Virus record (IMG/VR): IMGVR_UViG_3300045044_000041
Coordinates: 1-26,131 of that record
DNA from: a virus
DNA length: 26,131 nt
Direction: 5' to 3' (one strand)
The notes beneath the pieces were generated by a model, which saw only the letters and a list, made by a program, of their open reading frames with translations, did no database searches and had not been told where the DNA came from. Positions 9,388-20,724 of this stretch are shown here, in pieces. Both the position numbers and the translations under genes were made by a program. The first letter of the stretch is position 1, and every line of letters begins with the position of its first letter.

Positions 9388-9737
9388 CAGAGGGCCGGTC
9401 CCGTGATCAGAAAGGTGGCCGAGCCCACGCTGCGGCCATTCGGCAAGTACGTCGGCCGCGACAGCGCACTCAGGATGCCGCTCGTCGAGCCCAGACCGTC
9501 TATGGCCAGCGTGCCGGCACCGGGCCCGCGGACGATGTCAACGACCACGTTGCTGCCGCCCAGTGGGACATGCACGTGGTACTTGGTGGTGACCAACGTC
9601 TGCAGCGTCAGCCAATCGGCCTGCGTCGTCAGGTACACGCCGAAGACGAACTCCTGCAGGTCGCCGATCGTCTGATGGGCCTGCTGGATGGTCGACTTGA
9701 AGGTCGCCGTCGTTGAACCGATGACAAAGCTAGACAT
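9387..9737 (-). CDS. Minor tail protein
   Basis: Encodes 116 residues, beta-rich, with alternating hydrophobics (KYHVHVPLGGSNVVVDIVRG) and little charge. The first gene after the tape measure often encodes a distal tail or tip protein, but this one is shorter than typical Dit proteins (about 200-250 residues). It could be a one-domain Dit-like ring protein or a tip adaptor. The ATG overlaps the tape measure stop (TGATG). Confidence 0.65.
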   Translation of the reverse strand: MSSFVIGSTTATFKSTIQQAHQTIGDLQEFVFGVYLTTQADWLTLQTLVTTKYHVHVPLGGSNVVVDIVRGPGAGTLAIDGLGSTSGILSALSRPTYLPNGRSVGSATFLITGPAL

Positions 9738-11734
9738 CAGGTCCGTCGCAAGGGTGAGAACTGGATGATCGGCGGCGTCTGCGCTTGCCCATTGGCTTCG
9801 ATGAGCTCGTTGTAGACCTGCTGTGAGCCGTCGGCGTTGTTGATGACGACCGTCAGCGGCACCTGGATGAGCTGGTCTTTGAAGGCCTGGGCGGCCTGCA
9901 CCTGGGCGGCGACGATCGCGCTCAATAGCTGGTTCTGCGTTTCGGCTCCCTGGACGCCGGCCAGCAGGCCCTGCTGCGCGAGGTCCTGCAACTGGGCCTG
10001 CATGCTCAAGCGTGTCGCCGCGCGCCCGGCGACCACTACGCCGCGCTCGGCATCCAGCGCGGTGAGCTCCACGCCTGGCTGAGCACGCACCAGCCCGCGG
10101 AGTTGACCTCGAGCCGCTGCGCGTTCTTCGGGCGTCGCATACGGATTGGTGGCGATGAGCGTGGCTCGCTGCTGCATGTAGCGCAGATCTTCGGCAACCT
10201 CGGTGGCCGGCAGGGCGGCTTGCCGAGCCAGGATCTGCTGCTGGGCCATGTCCCGCTGCAGTGCCGCCATACGTTCGACATTCGGCAGCATCTCGAGCCG
10301 TAGGCGCGCCTCCTCAGCCGTCAGGTCGACCTGCTCATGCTGCAAGCGGACGCGCTCGGTCGTGGCGTTGATCAAGATCTGAGTCGCGGCGTCAACGGCT
10401 GCTTGACGCTCTGCTTGCGCGGCGGCGCGCGCGGCGGCCTCTGCGTGTTTAGCAGCCGAGGCGGCCGCCCGGTCTTCAGCATCGGCCACATGGGTAATCG
10501 CCACACTGGTCGCCGCGGCCGACTCCTGAACCGCTTGTACGGCATCGGCCAATGGGGGACCGGCCTCGTTTGCCTGCTGGAACGCGTCGCCCATAGCCTG
10601 CAAGGTCTCTACGCCTGGCCTGGCATTGATGTCCTGGAGCGCGTCGCGCACCTGCTGCAGGAACTCGATACCGGGCTTGGCATTGAAGTCCTTCATGCGC
10701 TGGAGCAATTCCTGCTCGTTTTTGAAGCCCGGATCGGTGCCCTGATTATTCTGACTGTTGGCAGCCAGCGCCGCGGTCAGGTCGTTGACGCCTTTGAGCA
10801 TGTCGGCCAACACACCGACGACACCCGGCCCCGTGGTCGAAACGAAGTGCTCCCATTGCGCGTTCAGCCGCTCCTGCTGCGCTTGCAGGTTCTGGACAGG
10901 ACCCGTACCGACCGTATCGGCCATCTTGCCGACCTCTTCGAGCGCGGCCCGGTAGCGCAGCGTGGCCTGGGTGCCCGGATCAAGTTGCTTGAAGACTTCG
11001 GCACTCGCACCGCCCATCTGGGTGTAGGCGACATACGCGTCGTCCAAGTTCAGGCCGAGCGCGTTAGCCGCCTGCGCGTTGCCCTGCATGGCCGCGGTGA
11101 GTTGCGTCATCGTCTGGGCGACGTCGGTACCCTCAATGCGGCTGAGCTGGAGCGCCACCTGCGTCAGACCCTGGACCTGGTCCGGAACCAGACCGATCTG
11201 TCGACCGAACTGGGCCGCGGCGGTACCCGCCTCAAGCAGCCCGCGGCGTGCGACGCCGGATTGCTCGGCGAGACCGGTGGCCCAGTTCTGGAAGTCGGCC
11301 GCCTGCGTCCCCAGGACGATCGCGTTCATACGCGTGGCGCGGTCGAGACTGATCGTGTCCTGGACGACGCTCTGGAGAACGGAGTGCACCGCGGTCCCAG
11401 CAATGGTGAAGGCTGACAACCCCAGCCCGACACCGATGACCGAGGCCCCAAAGCGAGCAAACTCGTCCGCGGTCACATGGACGGCCTCGCCCACCGCGCG
11501 AGTCGACTTCGCCGCGGCCTCTTCCGTCACCGCGACGCCTGCACCCCGCATCGCTGCCTCGAGGCCACCAGCTCGCTGGAAGGCCGAGGCACGTGCGGCG
11601 GCCTCAGCGATTCGTGGATTGACGGGCTGCTGGGCTTGCTGTTGAACCTGCCTGACGGCCGCGCCGTAACGCTGGACGGCGGCGGTGTCCGCGACGGTCT
11701 GGATGGTGACCTTGAGCTGTTCTTCAGTCGCCAT
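9737..11734 (-). CDS. Tape measure protein
   Basis: Encodes 665 residues, Ala/Gln rich and mostly helical. It follows the tail assembly chaperones and precedes the tip genes, the standard place. Residues about 96-121 are a hydrophobic segment (FGASVIGVGLGLSAFTIAG) as expected for the part entering the membrane. Residues beyond 400 are coiled-coil-like (AASAAKHAEAAARAAAQAER). Two 19-residue tandem repeats (FNAKPGIEFLQQVRDALQD, INARPGVETLQAMGDAFQQ; 10 identical) lie at 10574-10687. By the usual 0.15 nm per residue rule, the length implies a tail near 100 nm. No peptidase domain is seen. The ATG overlaps the chaperone stop by 11 nt. Confidence 0.92.
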   Translation of the reverse strand: MATEEQLKVTIQTVADTAAVQRYGAAVRQVQQQAQQPVNPRIAEAAARASAFQRAGGLEAAMRGAGVAVTEEAAAKSTRAVGEAVHVTADEFARFGASVIGVGLGLSAFTIAGTAVHSVLQSVVQDTISLDRATRMNAIVLGTQAADFQNWATGLAEQSGVARRGLLEAGTAAAQFGRQIGLVPDQVQGLTQVALQLSRIEGTDVAQTMTQLTAAMQGNAQAANALGLNLDDAYVAYTQMGGASAEVFKQLDPGTQATLRYRAALEEVGKMADTVGTGPVQNLQAQQERLNAQWEHFVSTTGPGVVGVLADMLKGVNDLTAALAANSQNNQGTDPGFKNEQELLQRMKDFNAKPGIEFLQQVRDALQDINARPGVETLQAMGDAFQQANEAGPPLADAVQAVQESAAATSVAITHVADAEDRAAASAAKHAEAAARAAAQAERQAAVDAATQILINATTERVRLQHEQVDLTAEEARLRLEMLPNVERMAALQRDMAQQQILARQAALPATEVAEDLRYMQQRATLIATNPYATPEERAAARGQLRGLVRAQPGVELTALDAERGVVVAGRAATRLSMQAQLQDLAQQGLLAGVQGAETQNQLLSAIVAAQVQAAQAFKDQLIQVPLTVVINNADGSQQVYNELIEANGQAQTPPIIQFSPLRRT

Positions 11735-12298
11735 CGTCGTCGTCCAGAATCACCGCGACGTCATCCGGGCCGAGTCCTGCCCAGGCCTGCGCGACTTCGC
11801 CTTCGACAACCAGGAAGCTGAGCACGCGCTGACGACGGTCCGCGTCGACATCCTCCCAGTACAGTGGCCCCGTCCCCTCGAAGCGATCAGCCAGCAGAAT
11901 CGGCACATAGTCGAGCGGTGGGCCTAGGCCGGCACGCTGCCCAGGACGGCGCCGTTGGTCCGAGAGGTAGTCTCGGAGCGCTCGGCGCGTGCTTTTGGGA
12001 TCGCCGCCGAATCGGCCATGGCCTCGACGTAGCGCAGCACCAGCGTATTCAGGATGTCGATGGGCAGATCCCGCGGCCCAAGTCCGTCGCGCGGCAACGG
12101 CAGCGGCTGGCCATCCTCATCCTGGAAGTTCCAGCCCACGACGATCTCCGAGAACGCCGCCCAGAACTCGTCGCGCTCCTGGCTCAGGAACGCGTCGTAT
12201 GTGCGCGCGCGCACGTTGAGTCGCAGCTCGGCCAACCACCCGTCGTACCCGATCTCGTCAAGGGAAATGGTGGCGGTCTTGATTGGTAGCGATTTCAT
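11724..12298 (-). CDS. Tail assembly chaperone G-T fusion made by -1 frameshift
   Basis: Ribosomes starting at 12298 read 102 codons, then can slip -1 on CCCAAAA (11993-11999) and continue to the stop at 11724. This gives a 191-residue protein (89 residues after the slip, beginning STRRALRDYLSDQRRR). The new frame is open throughout and reads like real protein (GLGPPLDYVPILLADRF). Siphophages as a group make a long G-T form of the tail chaperone exactly this way, upstream of the tape measure gene, to load that protein during tail assembly. A GTG at 11906 could also start the 60-residue C-terminal part alone, but the fusion is the better explanation. Confidence 0.8.
11924..12298 (-). CDS. Tail assembly chaperone G (short, unshifted form)
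   Basis: Encodes 124 residues: MKSLPIKTATISLDEIGYDG, then helical segments (YDAFLSQERDEFWAAFSEIV) and a Ser/Thr/Arg-rich tail. Position, length and a beta-start/helical-body layout fit the G protein of siphophages, which binds the tape measure protein and recruits tail tube subunits. Most ribosomes should stop here, giving an excess of G over the fusion. No strong ribosome binding site precedes the ATG. The 67 bases upstream (12299-12365) lie between this gene and the divergent secreted-protein gene and may hold promoters in both directions. Confidence 0.8.
   Translation of the reverse strand: MKSLPIKTATISLDEIGYDGWLAELRLNVRARTYDAFLSQERDEFWAAFSEIVVGWNFQDEDGQPLPLPRDGLGPRDLPIDILNTLVLRYVEAMADSAAIPKARAERSETTSRTNGAVLGSVPA
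11993..11999 (-). promoter_or_regulatory. -1 programmed frameshift slippery heptamer CCCAAAA
   Basis: On the minus strand the zero-frame codons are C|CCA|AAA, the canonical X-XXY-YYZ pattern, at codons 101-102 of the chaperone gene. Slippage moves into the only frame that stays open to the start of the tape measure gene. The G/C-rich downstream sequence could form a stimulatory structure. Confidence 0.82.
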
Positions 12299-12365
12299 AC
12301 CGATTTCACGACAGTGCCGCTAGCGTTAGTAGTCTCTTTACCGCGCACATCGATAACTCATTTCC

Positions 12366-12740
12366 ATGAAAAGAGCCCTGTTTCTGGCCCCAGTTGCCGG
12401 TCTTGCCTTGTTCGCGTCTGCCATGCCGGCCAGCGCGCAGTCCGTCGATCTTGCCGCCGAGTTGCGTCAGGTCGACCATGAGGTGCTTGGCAATCGCGAC
12501 GATGTCGATCGCCTCGAGCGGCAGATCAATAGGTGTCAGGATGTTGACCCTGATGCGGTCGTCGCGCTGGCAACCACGGCAAATGAGCTGTCCCAGCGTG
12601 CGGCGGCCATTGCCCCGCAGGTCCCTGGCCGGCAGCATGTGCTGGCGCTGAATGTCCAGTCGATTGCCGAAACGAACTTCTGGCGCCTGATGCACCCGCC
12701 GGTCGCCGAGCAGTGCTACGTGCCGCCTGTCGAGGAGTAG
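12366..12740 (+). CDS. Secreted protein encoded antisense in the tail operon (moron)
   Basis: Encodes 124 residues beginning with a textbook Sec signal peptide: MKR, hydrophobic core (ALFLAPVAGLALFASA), and PASA before Gln25 as the likely cleavage site. The mature part is helical and acidic, with Cys57 and Cys117 able to form a disulfide. It lies alone on the plus strand between tail tube and chaperone genes; its stop is 2 bases from the tube gene's stop. Extra genes placed this way are called morons and often change the host surface or exclude other phages. That role is inferred. No strong Shine-Dalgarno is seen. Confidence 0.72.
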   Translation: MKRALFLAPVAGLALFASAMPASAQSVDLAAELRQVDHEVLGNRDDVDRLERQINRCQDVDPDAVVALATTANELSQRAAAIAPQVPGRQHVLALNVQSIAETNFWRLMHPPVAEQCYVPPVEE

Positions 12741-12742
12741 CA

Positions 12743-13144
12743 CTACAGCGCGTTCGTCATGTTGCCGCGCGAGCGCCAGTTGGCCGTGAGCGCAACGGCC
12801 TGATCGACCGCGGTGCGCAGCGTCATGTCCACCCAGGCCGGCCCACCGAAGTATTTCGTCATGGCGTTCGACGACGGATAGAACGCGATGTTGGTCCCGT
12901 CGACGCTCTGCGAGGCGGTGCGCAGCGTGGTGTCGTCGGTGGCCCAGAAGCCCTCGACGGTGCCATTCGACGCGGGAAAACCCTGCACGCTGGTGCGGTT
13001 GGTGGCGCCGAACTCGGTGGTATCGACGACGTCGGTCGAGTTGTCCAGCGTGAACGCGCGCATGCCGCCGACCAGCACCGGCGTGCCGCTGCCCGTGGTG
13101 GACATGTAGACCAGCCCCGATTTGCCGTGATACTTGATGGCCAT
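12743..13144 (-). CDS. Major tail (tube) protein
   Basis: Encodes 133 residues: MAIKYHGKSGLVYMSTTG, then FTLDNSTDVVDTTEFG and TSVQGFPASNGTVEGFW, a strand pattern typical of small siphophage tube proteins. These form stacked hexamers around the tape measure. The position directly before the chaperone genes is standard, apart from the inserted plus-strand gene. AGAGGAG about 10 nt upstream provides a ribosome binding site, so this gene is probably strongly translated. Confidence 0.85.
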   Translation of the reverse strand: MAIKYHGKSGLVYMSTTGSGTPVLVGGMRAFTLDNSTDVVDTTEFGATNRTSVQGFPASNGTVEGFWATDDTTLRTASQSVDGTNIAFYPSSNAMTKYFGGPAWVDMTLRTAVDQAVALTANWRSRGNMTNAL

Positions 13145-13150
13145 TCCCGT

Positions 13151-14212
13151 CTAGGCTCCTCTCGCGATGAGCCGATCGTCGAAGGCTTCGAGATCGGCCA
13201 GAACTTGGGCCGCGCGCGCGGCGAATGTGTGCGGCGCGACCTTGTCCCGCGCCTGGCGTGCGGCATACCGCCGCGCTGGTGAGTCCTGCAGGTACGCCCG
13301 CAGCACGTCCTCGAGATGGTCGGGGTGAAACGACGGCACCGCACCGTCGAAAATCTCCCGCAGTTCTGCGCGATAGTCGCTGATCTGAAAGACGCCGCAG
13401 GCCGCGAGCTCGTACGCGCGCGGATTCAGGCTGTCGGCCCACGTGATGTGGGAGACGCCGCGGCCATAGTCGCAGCTGGTGCGGTGCAGATTCAGGCCGA
13501 TCCTGGCGCGTCGGTAGAGTTGCACGGCCGCATCGTTGCTAATCGGGCCGGCGTGGACGTAGCGGCGCAAGGGATGGCGCGAGCCGAGTAGCGACCAGTT
13601 GCCGTACAACCCCAGGTCGATACCCGTCCAGTCGACGGCGGCGAGTTGCTCGATGCGCTCCTCGAAACCCGTGCCGACGAAGACCACGTCATGCGCCGGC
13701 GTCTCCAGGTCCAATGCGTCCGGGTGGTGCCGCGCGGGATCGTAGGCGTGGCGTAGATAGCCGGCGCCGAGCGGCTGGGCGGAAGCCCGCTCAGTCGTCC
13801 AGATAACGTCAACGAGGGCCGCCAGCCGCGCCTGCGCCTCGTCCTCGTAGGGTGATTCGGTCAGCAAGACTGCCGTCCTGAGACGCGCCCGGTGCAGCAT
13901 TTCGAGCACGTCCGGGTGGAAGTACATCCCCGAGATGACCAACACCCAGTCGACGTCGAACCGCAGCGCCATCTCGAGCGCCTCGATGCTGGCGCGATAG
14001 ATCGTGTCCGGCCACGACGGCCGCTCTTCGGGCACTTTTCCCCGCGCGCGCCAGAGCTTATAGAGCCAGTCGCGCGCCAGGCCGAGCCGCGGCTCGAGCG
14101 CGTAATACCTGAGGTCGACACCGGGCACCGCCGAGAGCGCGTCGCGATACCCGTCCTCGACGTCCTTGGTCGAAAACGAGGCGCCGGCGCCGACCAACAG
14201 GATGCGCAACAT
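13151..14212 (-). CDS. CgeB/DUF3880-like GT-B glycosyltransferase
   Basis: Encodes 353 residues. The N-terminal half is Rossmann-like (MLRILLVGAGASF) with VDWVLVISGMYFHPDVLEML. The C-terminal half carries SLNPRAYELAACGVFQISDY followed by FHPDHLEDVLRAYL, the donor-binding signature of CgeB-type glycosyltransferases. Expected chemistry is transfer of an activated sugar to a protein or glycan; donor and acceptor are unknown. The ATG directly abuts the stop of the small upstream gene. It lies right before the tail tube gene, so a virion protein is a plausible acceptor. Confidence 0.85.
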   Translation of the reverse strand: MLRILLVGAGASFSTKDVEDGYRDALSAVPGVDLRYYALEPRLGLARDWLYKLWRARGKVPEERPSWPDTIYRASIEALEMALRFDVDWVLVISGMYFHPDVLEMLHRARLRTAVLLTESPYEDEAQARLAALVDVIWTTERASAQPLGAGYLRHAYDPARHHPDALDLETPAHDVVFVGTGFEERIEQLAAVDWTGIDLGLYGNWSLLGSRHPLRRYVHAGPISNDAAVQLYRRARIGLNLHRTSCDYGRGVSHITWADSLNPRAYELAACGVFQISDYRAELREIFDGAVPSFHPDHLEDVLRAYLQDSPARRYAARQARDKVAPHTFAARAAQVLADLEAFDDRLIARGA

Positions 14213-14467: not shown

Positions 14468-14688
14468 CAGGGTGGGGTGGTGACCGGCGTGCAGCCGCAC
14501 GTCGCGGTCGTCTGGTAGTAGGCCAGCAATTCTGCTTTGGCCTGATCGACGGTCTCAGCCGCGGGTTCGACCTCGACGCTATGGATCGCGCAATACACGC
14601 TGGTGTGCGGGCACTTCCAGGCCAGCACTTCGATACCGGGGCCGGTGCTGAGCTGGCTGTAGCCGGCGTTGTTGCTGCCTTCAGTCAT
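14467..14688 (-). CDS. 73-aa small Cys-containing protein
   Basis: Encodes 73 residues with Cys26, Cys33 and a CGC near 64-66 (AWKCPHTSVYCAIHSVEVEP; TATCGCTPV). It could bind metal or form disulfides. The ATG overlaps the methyltransferase stop (ATGA), and the stop overlaps the next gene's ribosome binding site. Location within the modification island suggests a linked role. No family is recognised. Confidence 0.6.
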   Translation of the reverse strand: MTEGSNNAGYSQLSTGPGIEVLAWKCPHTSVYCAIHSVEVEPAAETVDQAKAELLAYYQTTATCGCTPVTTPP

Positions 14689-15239
14689 GGTTTTATTGAG
14701 TCCAAACCCACTTGGTACCAGGCACCCACGGCCACCCGTGGGTCACGGAATCTATCGAATTCGCCCAGGACCTCGAAGCCCGCCCGCTGGAGCGCCCGTG
14801 CGAGCGTGGACCTGTCGTAGCCCCACTGGTGCCGACTCGCCTGGGCCGTCGAGAAGATGATCATCTCGTTGAGCTCGTCCAGGTCGCGCAGGTCGCGGTG
14901 GTGACCCGCGGGCCACTCGGCCGGTGCCGGCTCGTCGCTCACGTAGCGACGGAAACACTCGGCGATGTCCGGCACGAGGATGCCCAGTCGTCCCGCGGGC
15001 TCGAGCACGCGATAGCACTCACCCAGGAACTCGGCAGCCTCGCCACGGCTCAGGTGCTCGAGGAAGTGGCCGGCGTAGATCTCGCTGACGCTCTCGGTCG
15101 CCCACGGTAAGGGCGGCACGCGCAGCACCAGGTTGACGCCGGCATACGCCGTCTCGTCGACGTTGACCCAGCCCGGCATCCGCATGGGCAGGTCACCGCA
15201 GCCGATGTTCAGGCGCACCGTGCCGACGCTTATCGCCAC
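14685..15239 (-). CDS. SAM-dependent class I methyltransferase
   Basis: Encodes 184 residues from the GTG at 15239; a GTG at 15218 is an alternative. Motif I is VRLNIGCGDL with the following acidic strand GWVNVDE. A typical YAGHFLEHLSRGEAAEFLGE post-I region and VLEPAGRLGILVPD strand complete the Rossmann core. Such enzymes near glycosyltransferases methylate sugars or small acceptors. The gene overlaps the GT2 gene by 10 nt, so they are translated together. Substrate unknown; a role in capping or modifying the glycan added by the neighbours is inferred. Confidence 0.85.
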   Translation of the reverse strand: MAISVGTVRLNIGCGDLPMRMPGWVNVDETAYAGVNLVLRVPPLPWATESVSEIYAGHFLEHLSRGEAAEFLGECYRVLEPAGRLGILVPDIAECFRRYVSDEPAPAEWPAGHHRDLRDLDELNEMIIFSTAQASRHQWGYDRSTLARALQRAGFEVLGEFDRFRDPRVAVGAWYQVGLDSIKP

Positions 15240-15841
15240 CAGAGCTGCTCCGGCGTCGGTCGCGCGATGCTGATCACCTGGTCGACCCATGCCGCGTCGC
15301 CGGCGCTCAAGGCGCAGGCCTGCACCGCGGCGTCGTAATCCCCCTCGTAACGCAACCCCCAGGTCACTTTGTCGGCAATCCGGCGCGGCAGCACCATGCA
15401 GTCGGCGTCGATGTTGCCCAGCGTGAGCTGCTCGGGCGAGCGCCAGATCAGCTCGCCCCAGTACGCCTGCAGACGCAGAAAGATCGGCCGCACCCGCGGC
15501 TGCTCACGGGTCGCCACCTCGATGGCCGCCAGCGAATCCTCGGCGGCGATGTTGTCGTCCTGGGTGAACCAGACCCACGGCGCCGTCGCCTGTTTGGCGC
15601 CATACGTCCTTTGCGGCTGCCCGACGCAGTGCTGGCCAGCGTCGTGCTCGAGCCAGTCGTAGCCAGTGGCATGCACTCGCTCGCGCGCCTGCTCGAGGAG
15701 ATTCGTCCGCCCGCCATGGGTGTCACCCACGACCAGAACCTCGAGACCGGCACTCTCGGGCTGCGCGCGTAACGACTCGAGCGTCAGCGCGAGCGTTTCA
15801 CGTCCAACGGTCGGAATCACCACCGACAACCAGGGACTCAC
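15230..15841 (-). CDS. Family 2-like glycosyltransferase (GT-A fold)
   Basis: Encodes 203 residues. WLSVVIPTVGRETLALTLES at the N-terminus is the nucleotide-sugar binding start of GT2 enzymes, and WFTQDDNIAAEDSL (about 91-104) supplies the DxD-type metal site. The length is that of a bare catalytic domain without membrane helices, so it should act in the cytoplasm. The ATG/GTG region overlaps the tail terminator stop by 4 nt. Its place inside the head-tail operon means it is made late, with the virion proteins. Confidence 0.85.
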   Translation of the reverse strand: MSPWLSVVIPTVGRETLALTLESLRAQPESAGLEVLVVGDTHGGRTNLLEQARERVHATGYDWLEHDAGQHCVGQPQRTYGAKQATAPWVWFTQDDNIAAEDSLAAIEVATREQPRVRPIFLRLQAYWGELIWRSPEQLTLGNIDADCMVLPRRIADKVTWGLRYEGDYDAAVQACALSAGDAAWVDQVISIARPTPEQLWWR

Positions 15842-19486: not shown

Positions 19487-19639
19487 CTACCTGGCCGTAG
19501 TTTGGGGCTTAACTTTCTTGGGGTCAAGATGCACAACTTTGAGGCCCATGCACGTGCGGCATACGGTCTTGACGTTGCCGGCGGGTGCATCCGACTGAAA
19601 CAGCAGCCGATTGCACTGGGGGCAGCGATAGTCCTTCAC
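19487..19639 (-). CDS. Com-like small zinc-finger protein
   Basis: Encodes 50 residues from the GTG that overlaps the glycosyltransferase stop (GTGA); a longer reading from 19690 is less likely. YRCPQCNRLLF (Cys6, Cys9) and VCRTCMGL (Cys27, Cys30) form a four-Cys zinc site resembling phage Mu Com, which binds mRNA and switches on translation of the mom DNA-modification gene. No mom-like gene lies next to it here. It may regulate neighbouring genes or serve another RNA- or DNA-binding role. Confidence 0.72.
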   Translation of the reverse strand: MKDYRCPQCNRLLFQSDAPAGNVKTVCRTCMGLKVVHLDPKKVKPQTTAR

Positions 19640-20724
19640 GCCGCAACTTGCCTGTAGCACTGGATGATGCGACTCCATGCCCGCGGCCACTCGAGCACGT
19701 TGGTGCTCAGAGCGTGTTCGGTCGCCACCCGTCGCCGCTGGGCTTTCCAGAGCCGGCGGCGCAGCTCGCAGTCATCGACCAGCTCGAGCAGCGCGTCGGT
19801 CCATTCGGCGGCGGTCTCGGCGACCAGCGCGTCCTGTTCGGGGGCGACGACAGGCCCGTACAGGGTGGGCGAGACGACCGAGACCGCGCCGGCCAGGGTG
19901 AACTCCCAGAGTTTGATGGGTGTCTTGCAGCGGTTGAAGTGTGACGGCGCCACGCTACAGCACGCGATGTCAACGTTCTTGAGTCCGCGCGGGTAGTCGG
20001 CGGCGCGCATCCAGGGGATGACGTACAGCCGCTCGGCCGGCACGGCCTGGGCGAGCTCGGGGGTGACGAAGCCCTGAATCACGAAGTTCACGTGTGGACG
20101 TGTACGCGCAATGGTTGCCCAGGCTTCGGCGACCGGCAGCAGGTCCTCGGCGTAGCGCGTCCCGCCAGCCCAACCGATCGTGAGTGGCGGCACTGCGCGC
20201 GGACTGCCGCGCAGCACGCGACGGAACCAGGCCACGTCAATGGCATTGGGCACCACCTCGACCGGCACGTCGGTGTACTGATTGACCACCTCGGCGAGCG
20301 TCTCGCTGCTGGTGATGACGCCGTCGCACAGTCGGACGGCCGCGATGCGGTCGCGACGATCCTGCTCGAGCCGCTCGAGCGTTTTGGACTGTTGCAGTGT
20401 GGCGTGCAATCTGGCCTCGATCTGTGGCGATAGCAGGTCGTCGTCGAGGTCGTAAATCACAGCCAGGTCAGTGCGATGAAGTGAATCGATGAAGGCGCGC
20501 GCGTATCGCTGGTCCTGCCATGACAGCCGCGGCAGGATGACCGCCTCGAGCCGCGTGGCCGCCAGATAGGTCCATTCCGAGGTGCCGAGGCGGGGATCGT
20601 CCTTGGAGCACCACCAGGCCGCGTAGCCGCGGTGCTCGAGCTCGGCGAACGGGAGCCAGACGCGCCAGAGCGTGCAGCCATCCTCTTCGCCGGTGAGCGC
20701 CAGGACGCGCGGCCCCTTGATCAC
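19636..20724 (-). CDS. GT-B (GT4-like) glycosyltransferase
   Basis: Encodes 362 residues. VIYDLDDDLLSPQIEARL marks a group of GT-B enzymes, and VEVVPNAIDVAWF, TIGWAGGTRYAEDLLPV and NRCKTPIKLWEFTLAGAVSV give the C-terminal donor-binding fold, including the acidic residue of the E-x7-E type site. No membrane helix, so cytoplasmic. The start is GTG, overlapping the 41-aa gene (GTGA). It lies between MuF-like and Com-like genes in the head module, separate from the other two glycosyltransferases. Confidence 0.87.
   Translation of the reverse strand: MIKGPRVLALTGEEDGCTLWRVWLPFAELEHRGYAAWWCSKDDPRLGTSEWTYLAATRLEAVILPRLSWQDQRYARAFIDSLHRTDLAVIYDLDDDLLSPQIEARLHATLQQSKTLERLEQDRRDRIAAVRLCDGVITSSETLAEVVNQYTDVPVEVVPNAIDVAWFRRVLRGSPRAVPPLTIGWAGGTRYAEDLLPVAEAWATIARTRPHVNFVIQGFVTPELAQAVPAERLYVIPWMRAADYPRGLKNVDIACCSVAPSHFNRCKTPIKLWEFTLAGAVSVVSPTLYGPVVAPEQDALVAETAAEWTDALLELVDDCELRRRLWKAQRRRVATEHALSTNVLEWPRAWSRIIQCYRQVAA

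What the first reader, a model, noticed from the sequence alone, without database searches (positions are those of the whole stretch)
12299..12740. Secreted-protein moron on the opposite strand between tail tube and chaperones
A 124-residue protein with a clear Sec signal peptide and two Cys is encoded antisense inside the most conserved gene order of siphophages. It needs its own promoter (12299-12365) and would be exported by the host. Such genes commonly protect the lysogen or infected cell from other phages or modify the envelope.
Basis: partly seen in the sequence, partly recalled or inferred. Interest (0 to 1): 0.6.

Follow-up and report, generated by a model that had tools for sequence, protein, structure and literature searches.

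The report
Secreted phage protein, antisense within tail genes
An uncultured phage carries, backwards between two tail genes, a small exported protein of a new family; four phages have it at the same spot, and neighbouring slots in relatives hold known cell-protection genes, so it probably shields the infected cell from rival phages.

Summary
ORF 12366-12740 (+, 124 aa) is a real gene. It has three homologues (58%, 43% and 41% identity) in other uncultured phages, all antisense at the same tail-tube/chaperone junction. All four keep a Sec signal peptide (AxA^Q) and two mature cysteines. Third-codon differences dominate, and AlphaFold predicts a confident three-helix bundle. The closest relatives (tube 92-93% identical) have 5 bp there, so it is an optional insertion, i.e. 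a moron. The sense neighbours are a tail tube and G/GT chaperones with an invariant CCCAAAA slippery site (20/20 loci). Relatives place other antisense genes at this junction or at the GT/tape-measure junction: T4 Imm-type superinfection-immunity genes (8 loci), TM/zinc-ribbon proteins, another exported family found in both slots, and HNH endonucleases. Three related contigs carry integrases, one of them with the moron. The best reading is a soluble periplasmic superinfection-exclusion moron, made from its own transcript; that function is inferred, not shown. No sigma-70 promoter or terminator was found. An 8-mer, TCTTTACC, recurs upstream of all four morons and of unrelated antisense genes; its role is unresolved. 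No family library, cultured phage or plasmid matches the protein.

The parts
12366..12740 (+). moron CDS, 124 aa, exported helical protein of a new family
   Evidence: homologues in L018, L028, L037 at the same junction and orientation
12366..12437 (+). Sec signal peptide MKRALFLAPVAGLALFASAMPASA, predicted cleavage ASA^Q
   Evidence: n-region charge +2, hydrophobic core, AxA motif kept in all four homologues
12438..12737 (+). mature domain, 100 aa, 11.1 kDa, pI 4.7, two conserved Cys, three-helix bundle
   Evidence: AlphaFold2, pLDDT about 95-98 over the helices, pTM 0.69
12299..12365 (+). 67-bp divergent intergenic region that must hold the moron's transcription start; no sigma-70 consensus found
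12335..12342 (+). TCTTTACC, 8-mer shared with the upstream regions of the other three morons and of unrelated antisense genes in relatives
12743..13144 (-). major tail (tube) protein; its stop codon is 2 bp from the moron's stop
   Evidence: phrog_10528, E 6.5e-7
11924..12298 (-). tail assembly chaperone G
   Evidence: position; conserved in relatives; slippery site
11993..11999 (-). CCCAAAA slippery heptamer for the G-GT -1 frameshift
   Evidence: identical in 20 of 20 loci
11724..11906 (-). GT part of the chaperone fusion; abuts the tape measure gene here (empty second slot)
9737..11734 (-). tape measure protein
   Evidence: position and length; 78-80% identical in L003/L004; no strong family match

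Best explanation
A moron: an optional, self-contained gene inserted antisense between the tail-tube and chaperone genes of a probably temperate siphophage group. Shown: a conserved coding gene, a signal peptide, presence/absence at one junction, and exchange between phage lineages. Inferred: it is transcribed from its own start while the late tail genes are silent (prophage, or early infection). The host Sec machinery exports it and cuts it to an 11-kDa soluble, probably disulfide-bonded three-helix protein in the periplasm. There it interferes with genome delivery by an incoming siphophage, for example at the tail-tip/tape-measure conduit, i.e. superinfection exclusion.
For: Gene and export. 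Fold. Optional insertion: L002, L003 and L004 (tube 92-93%, G 88-91%) have only 5 bp between tube and G. Company it keeps: antisense Imm_superinfect genes (Pfam E 3e-13 to 2e-19) at the GT/tape-measure junction of eight relatives, two of which also carry the moron; a second exported family found antisense at the tube/G slot in L029 and at the GT/tape-measure slot in L019 (E 2e-26). Temperate group: PF00589 integrases in three related contigs, one of which (L037's) carries the moron. [quoted passage not shown] Glo of phage K139 is cited as a soluble periplasmic exclusion protein (PMC3952083).
Against: No experiment. No sequence or fold match to any known exclusion protein. Most characterised exclusion proteins are membrane-anchored, whereas this one has no lipobox or second hydrophobic segment. 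No recognisable promoter or terminator. No integrase in the window contig itself, and the host is unknown. Moron and Imm co-occur in two phages, so they are not simple substitutes.
Confidence: 0.5

Rival explanations
1. Lysogenic-conversion protein for host benefit: the same exported moron, but acting on the host envelope, nutrition or stress rather than on rival phages.
For: Exported, optional, own transcription unit; nothing in the sequence points to a phage target.
Against: The antisense genes with a recognisable family in these slots are Imm_superinfect or HNH, not metabolic or surface-modifying genes.
Confidence: 0.27
2. Lytic-cycle envelope protein (lysis helper, spanin-like or lysozyme-inhibitor-like) that happens to be transcribed from the other strand.
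For: Small periplasmic helical protein with Cys; no lysis cassette was identified in the window.
Against: No lipobox and no inner-membrane anchor, so not a spanin. Absent from most relatives, which must still lyse. Orientation is opposite to the late genes.
Confidence: 0.1
3. The cassette matters mainly as antisense RNA: transcription from 12299-12365 runs into the tail-tube gene with no terminator and silences late genes in the prophage.
For: In the window, L018 and L037 the stop codons of moron and tube are 0-3 bp apart with no terminator found between them in the window; the orientation is conserved in all four phages.
Against: Strong selection on the encoded protein. Relatives without a cassette exist, and cassettes with unrelated coding sequence sit in the same slots.
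Confidence: 0.08
4. Spurious ORF or artefact of reading the antisense strand of a minus-strand gene.
For: A 378-codon minus ORF (12306-13442) overlaps it.
Against: Homologues in three other contigs; differences concentrate at the third position of the plus frame (75 against 33 and 37); closest relatives lack the DNA altogether.
Confidence: 0.01

Closest known systems
HK97 gp15 superinfection-exclusion moron (YebO-like, PF13974)
   Same: Small envelope-targeted optional gene within the tube/chaperone/tape-measure block; [quoted passage not shown]
   Different: gp15 is 62 aa, on the SAME strand as the tail genes, at the chaperone/tape-measure junction with a putative terminator, and predicted to be an inner-membrane protein; no meaningful sequence similarity (18 bits).
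T4 Imm / Pfam Imm_superinfect (PF14373)
   Same: Members lie antisense two genes away in relatives, as small envelope genes in the same orientation.
   Different: Integral membrane proteins of a different family; the window protein has no PF14373 match.
Ltp of Streptococcus phage TP-J34
   Same: Exported helical exclusion protein acting on the incoming tape measure protein; transcribed in the prophage (PMC3952083).
   Different: Lipoprotein encoded in the lysogeny module, in a Gram-positive host; no sequence or fold hit here.
Glo of vibriophage K139
   Same: Described as a soluble periplasmic exclusion protein, the nearest match in localisation (PMC3952083).
   Different: Sequence not compared here; genome position not checked.
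Morons in the sense of lambdoid phages (Juhala et al., from memory)
   Same: Extra gene between conserved late genes, absent in close relatives, able to be expressed on its own.
   Different: Here antisense, with no recognisable sigma-70 promoter or terminator; two interchangeable slots and a shared upstream 8-mer.

Membership tests
Moron | Extra gene inserted between two genes that are adjacent in close relatives | tested here: met
   L002, L003 and L004 have 5 bp where the window has 444 bp
Moron | Own promoter | tested here: inconclusive
   No sigma-70 consensus; shared TCTTTACC upstream of unknown role
Moron | Own terminator | tested here: not met
   No intrinsic terminator found; moron and tube stop codons are 2 bp apart in the window
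Moron | Expressed when late genes are silent (prophage) | not testable with these tools
   Only antisense orientation and integrases in relatives
Sec-exported soluble periplasmic protein | Signal peptide with AxA cleavage site and no further hydrophobic segment | tested here: met
   in all four homologues; rule-based, no SignalP available
Phage lipoprotein exclusion factors (Ltp, Cor, Llp type) | Lipobox Cys at the cleavage site | tested here: not met
   Cleavage is ASA^Q; first Cys at residue 57
Imm_superinfect (PF14373) | Pfam match above the gathering score | tested here: not met
   No Pfam hit for the window protein; the relatives' GT/tape-measure genes do match
HK97 gp15 / YebO | PF13974 match or sequence similarity | tested here: not met
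Superinfection exclusion protein (function) | Expression blocks DNA entry or adsorption of a challenging phage | not testable with these tools
   Needs a phage challenge assay
Tail assembly chaperone G/GT (neighbour genes) | -1 slippery heptamer joining the two ORFs upstream of the tape measure gene | tested here: met
   CCCAAAA in 20 of 20 loci, open -1 fusion

The most novel reading that the evidence does not exclude
This uncultured temperate phage group has a system of interchangeable antisense cassettes. Two fixed slots in the late operon (tube/G and GT/tape measure) are filled with unrelated envelope-targeted exclusion genes, tied together by a common upstream element (TCTTTACC) that is a group-specific promoter/operator or a cassette-joining site. 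The cassette/G edge would also be a recombination joint that separates tube from chaperone/tape-measure modules.
Probability: 0.35. Interest if true: 0.62.

Novelty: new variant of a known kind. Interest (0 to 1): 0.48.

Why it matters
It adds a family of exported phage proteins with no database match, placed next to the genes (tube, tape measure) that known exclusion proteins act on or through. It shows that antisense slots within the conserved tail block are reused by unrelated protection genes, which gives a way to find new exclusion proteins by position rather than by sequence. The shared upstream 8-mer offers a testable handle on how such genes are switched on in the prophage.

Tried and rejected
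Single-sequence scans of viral contigs and genome contigs with the window protein found nothing. Homologues appeared only after fetching relatives through the tail tube and chaperone, and a profile scan added no fifth member. Phage and plasmid tblastn gave only chance hits, E 1 or more. PADLOC, NCBIfam, PDB sequence, PDB fold and viral fold searches gave nothing usable; the fold hits are generic three-helix bundles. A weak 32-aa match in L003 (3169-3074, E 0.006) lies in a head-tail gene region and was rejected as chance. 'One antisense gene per phage, moron or Imm' was rejected: L028 and L037 carry both. TCTTTACC as a plain -35 box does not fit the window, where it ends 23 nt before the ATG, and no consistent -10 follows it in the other phages. 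As a Shine-Dalgarno site for the divergent tail gene it is too far (17-37 nt in most cases). The host could not be determined: no tRNA, no bacterial contig matched, and the best cultured-phage terminase is 44% identical.

Full report
What is there. The window is a 26,131-bp IMG/VR virus record. Its packaging, head and tail genes run on the minus strand. The ORF at 12366-12740 on the plus strand (124 aa) fills the interval between the tail-tube gene (12743-13144; PHROG major tail protein, E 6.5e-7) and the first chaperone gene (11924-12298). Its stop codon is 2 bp from the tube's stop, and its start is 67 bp from the chaperone's start, so any promoter must lie in 12299-12365.

G and GT match no Pfam or PHROG family. 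In all 20 loci examined, however, the sequence C CCA AAA occurs at the same place near the end of G, and a -1 shift there opens into GT. That is the standard programmed frameshift of siphophage tail chaperones. The tape measure gene follows.

The ORF is a gene. A tail-tube search gave relatives, as did a chaperone search. Three of them, L018 (1606-1238), L028 (5898-5521) and L037 (5923-5540), carry homologues at 58%, 43% and 41% identity. All are antisense, all at the same junction. Between window and L018 the codon-position differences are 33, 37 and 75, with dN 0.35 against a saturated dS near 3. Differences thus pile up at the third position of the plus frame, which argues against the overlapping 378-codon minus ORF being the real gene.

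The product is exported. All four N-termini have a charged n-region, a hydrophobic core and an AxA^Q cleavage site (rule-based, no SignalP at hand). The mature part is about 11 kDa, acidic, with no second hydrophobic segment and no lipobox. C57 and C117 are conserved. AlphaFold2 on the four-sequence alignment gives three helices with pLDDT about 95-98 and pTM 0.69. Foldseek on the similar two-sequence model finds only generic three-helix bundles, with E 0.13 or worse.

It is optional and it moves. The closest relatives L002, L003 and L004 have a tube 92-93% identical and a chaperone 88-91% identical to the window's, yet only 5 bp separate the two genes. L005 and L018 share 89% of G, but only L018 has the moron. 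In the four moron phages, moron, tube and glycosyltransferase group window with L018 and L028 with L037. G, GT and tape measure group window with L037 and L018 with L028. The moron therefore travels with the tube side, and a recombination joint lies at its boundary with G.

The company it keeps. The same junction holds an antisense HNH endonuclease in L006, L007 and L010, and another antisense exported protein in L029 and L030. The junction GT/tape measure, closed in the window and in L018, holds antisense genes in most relatives. Pfam Imm_superinfect proteins (the T4 Imm family) occur in L005, L009, L011, L012, L028, L037, L039 and L049. TM/zinc-ribbon proteins occur in L003, L004, L008, L016 and L021. 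A homologue of the L029 exported protein occurs in L019 (E 2e-26). The two junctions thus act as interchangeable slots for antisense envelope genes. Integrases of PF00589 lie in the records of L037, L013 and L049, so the group is at least partly temperate.

A shared upstream element. TCTTTACC occurs upstream of all four morons, of the zinc-ribbon genes of L003 and L004, and of the Imm genes of L037 and L039. In 16 records (about 333 kb) it occurs 13 times, eight of them at these places; the reversed control word occurs 0 times. Of the other five, those in L061, L062 and L063 fall inside ORFs, one lies in a glycosyltransferase gene of L004, and one, in L052, was not resolved. With homologous upstream regions reduced to one representative, it is in 6 of 17 intervals. 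The best 8-mer in 300 dinucleotide shuffles never exceeded 4. Its role is open. It is too close to the window's ATG for a -35 box, and too far from the divergent tail gene for a ribosome-binding site. A regulatory site or a cassette-joining site both remain possible.

How it most likely works. The best-supported reading is a moron whose product is exported and protects the lysogen or infected cell from related phages. Export signal, conservation, optional presence and orientation are shown. Expression in the prophage and action on an incoming tail are inferred from the Imm genes in the neighbouring slot and from precedents. HK97 gp15 lies between chaperone and tape measure and is escaped by HK97 hybrids carrying HK022 tube and tape measure genes (PMC10883804). 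TP-J34 Ltp targets the tape measure protein, and Glo is described as a soluble periplasmic exclusion protein (both PMC3952083). I put this function at about 0.5, host-directed lysogenic conversion at 0.27, a lysis role at 0.1 and antisense silencing at 0.08.

Membership. It meets the insertion criterion for a moron. A terminator was not found, and the promoter test was inconclusive. It is not a member of Imm_superinfect, HK97 gp15/YebO or the lipoprotein exclusion factors by the tests made. No family library, cultured phage, plasmid or bacterial contig matched it.

Noticed in passing
window 11993-11999 (-), and the G genes of 19 related loci: Invariant CCCAAAA slippery heptamer joining two chaperone ORFs that match no Pfam or PHROG family; a clean new group of G/GT frameshift chaperones.
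   Followed up: yes
window 12335-12342; L018 1661-1668; L028 5945-5952; L037 5969-5976 and 6907-6914; L003 8281-8288; L004 8233-8240; L039 6852-6859: TCTTTACC upstream of antisense genes of unrelated families; promoter, operator or cassette-joining site unknown.
   Followed up: partly
L005 8555-8830, L009 4548-4838, L011 3479-3814, L012 5446-5766, L037 6556-6888, L039 6562-6813 (all -): Antisense Imm_superinfect (PF14373) genes between the GT chaperone and tape measure genes in related uncultured phages.
   Followed up: yes
L029 5511-5924 (-) and L019 8006-8476 (-): A second family of antisense exported/anchored proteins with two Cys, at the tube/G slot in one phage and the GT/tape-measure slot in another; no Pfam match.
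   Followed up: partly
L003 7805-8161, L004 7763-8155, L016 4236-4505 (-): Antisense two-TM plus C-terminal zinc-ribbon proteins; their leaders share inverted CCGCCGGG/CCCGGCGG repeats, also found in part upstream of the Imm gene in L037, as if promoter/leader and coding part had been recombined.
   Followed up: no
window 13151-14212, 14685-15290, 15230-15841, 19636-20724 (-): Three glycosyltransferases and a methyltransferase interspersed among the head and tail genes, conserved in relatives; possibly virion-protein glycosylation.
   Followed up: no
L006 6418-7029, L007 3310-3921, L010 1347-2012 (-): Antisense HNH_3 endonucleases at the same tube/G junction as the moron; in L010 with an extra small membrane-protein ORF upstream.
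   Followed up: partly
moron start codons in window, L018, L028, L037: No Shine-Dalgarno sequence precedes the moron start in any of the four, while several Imm and zinc-ribbon cassettes have strong ones; leaderless translation is possible.
   Followed up: no
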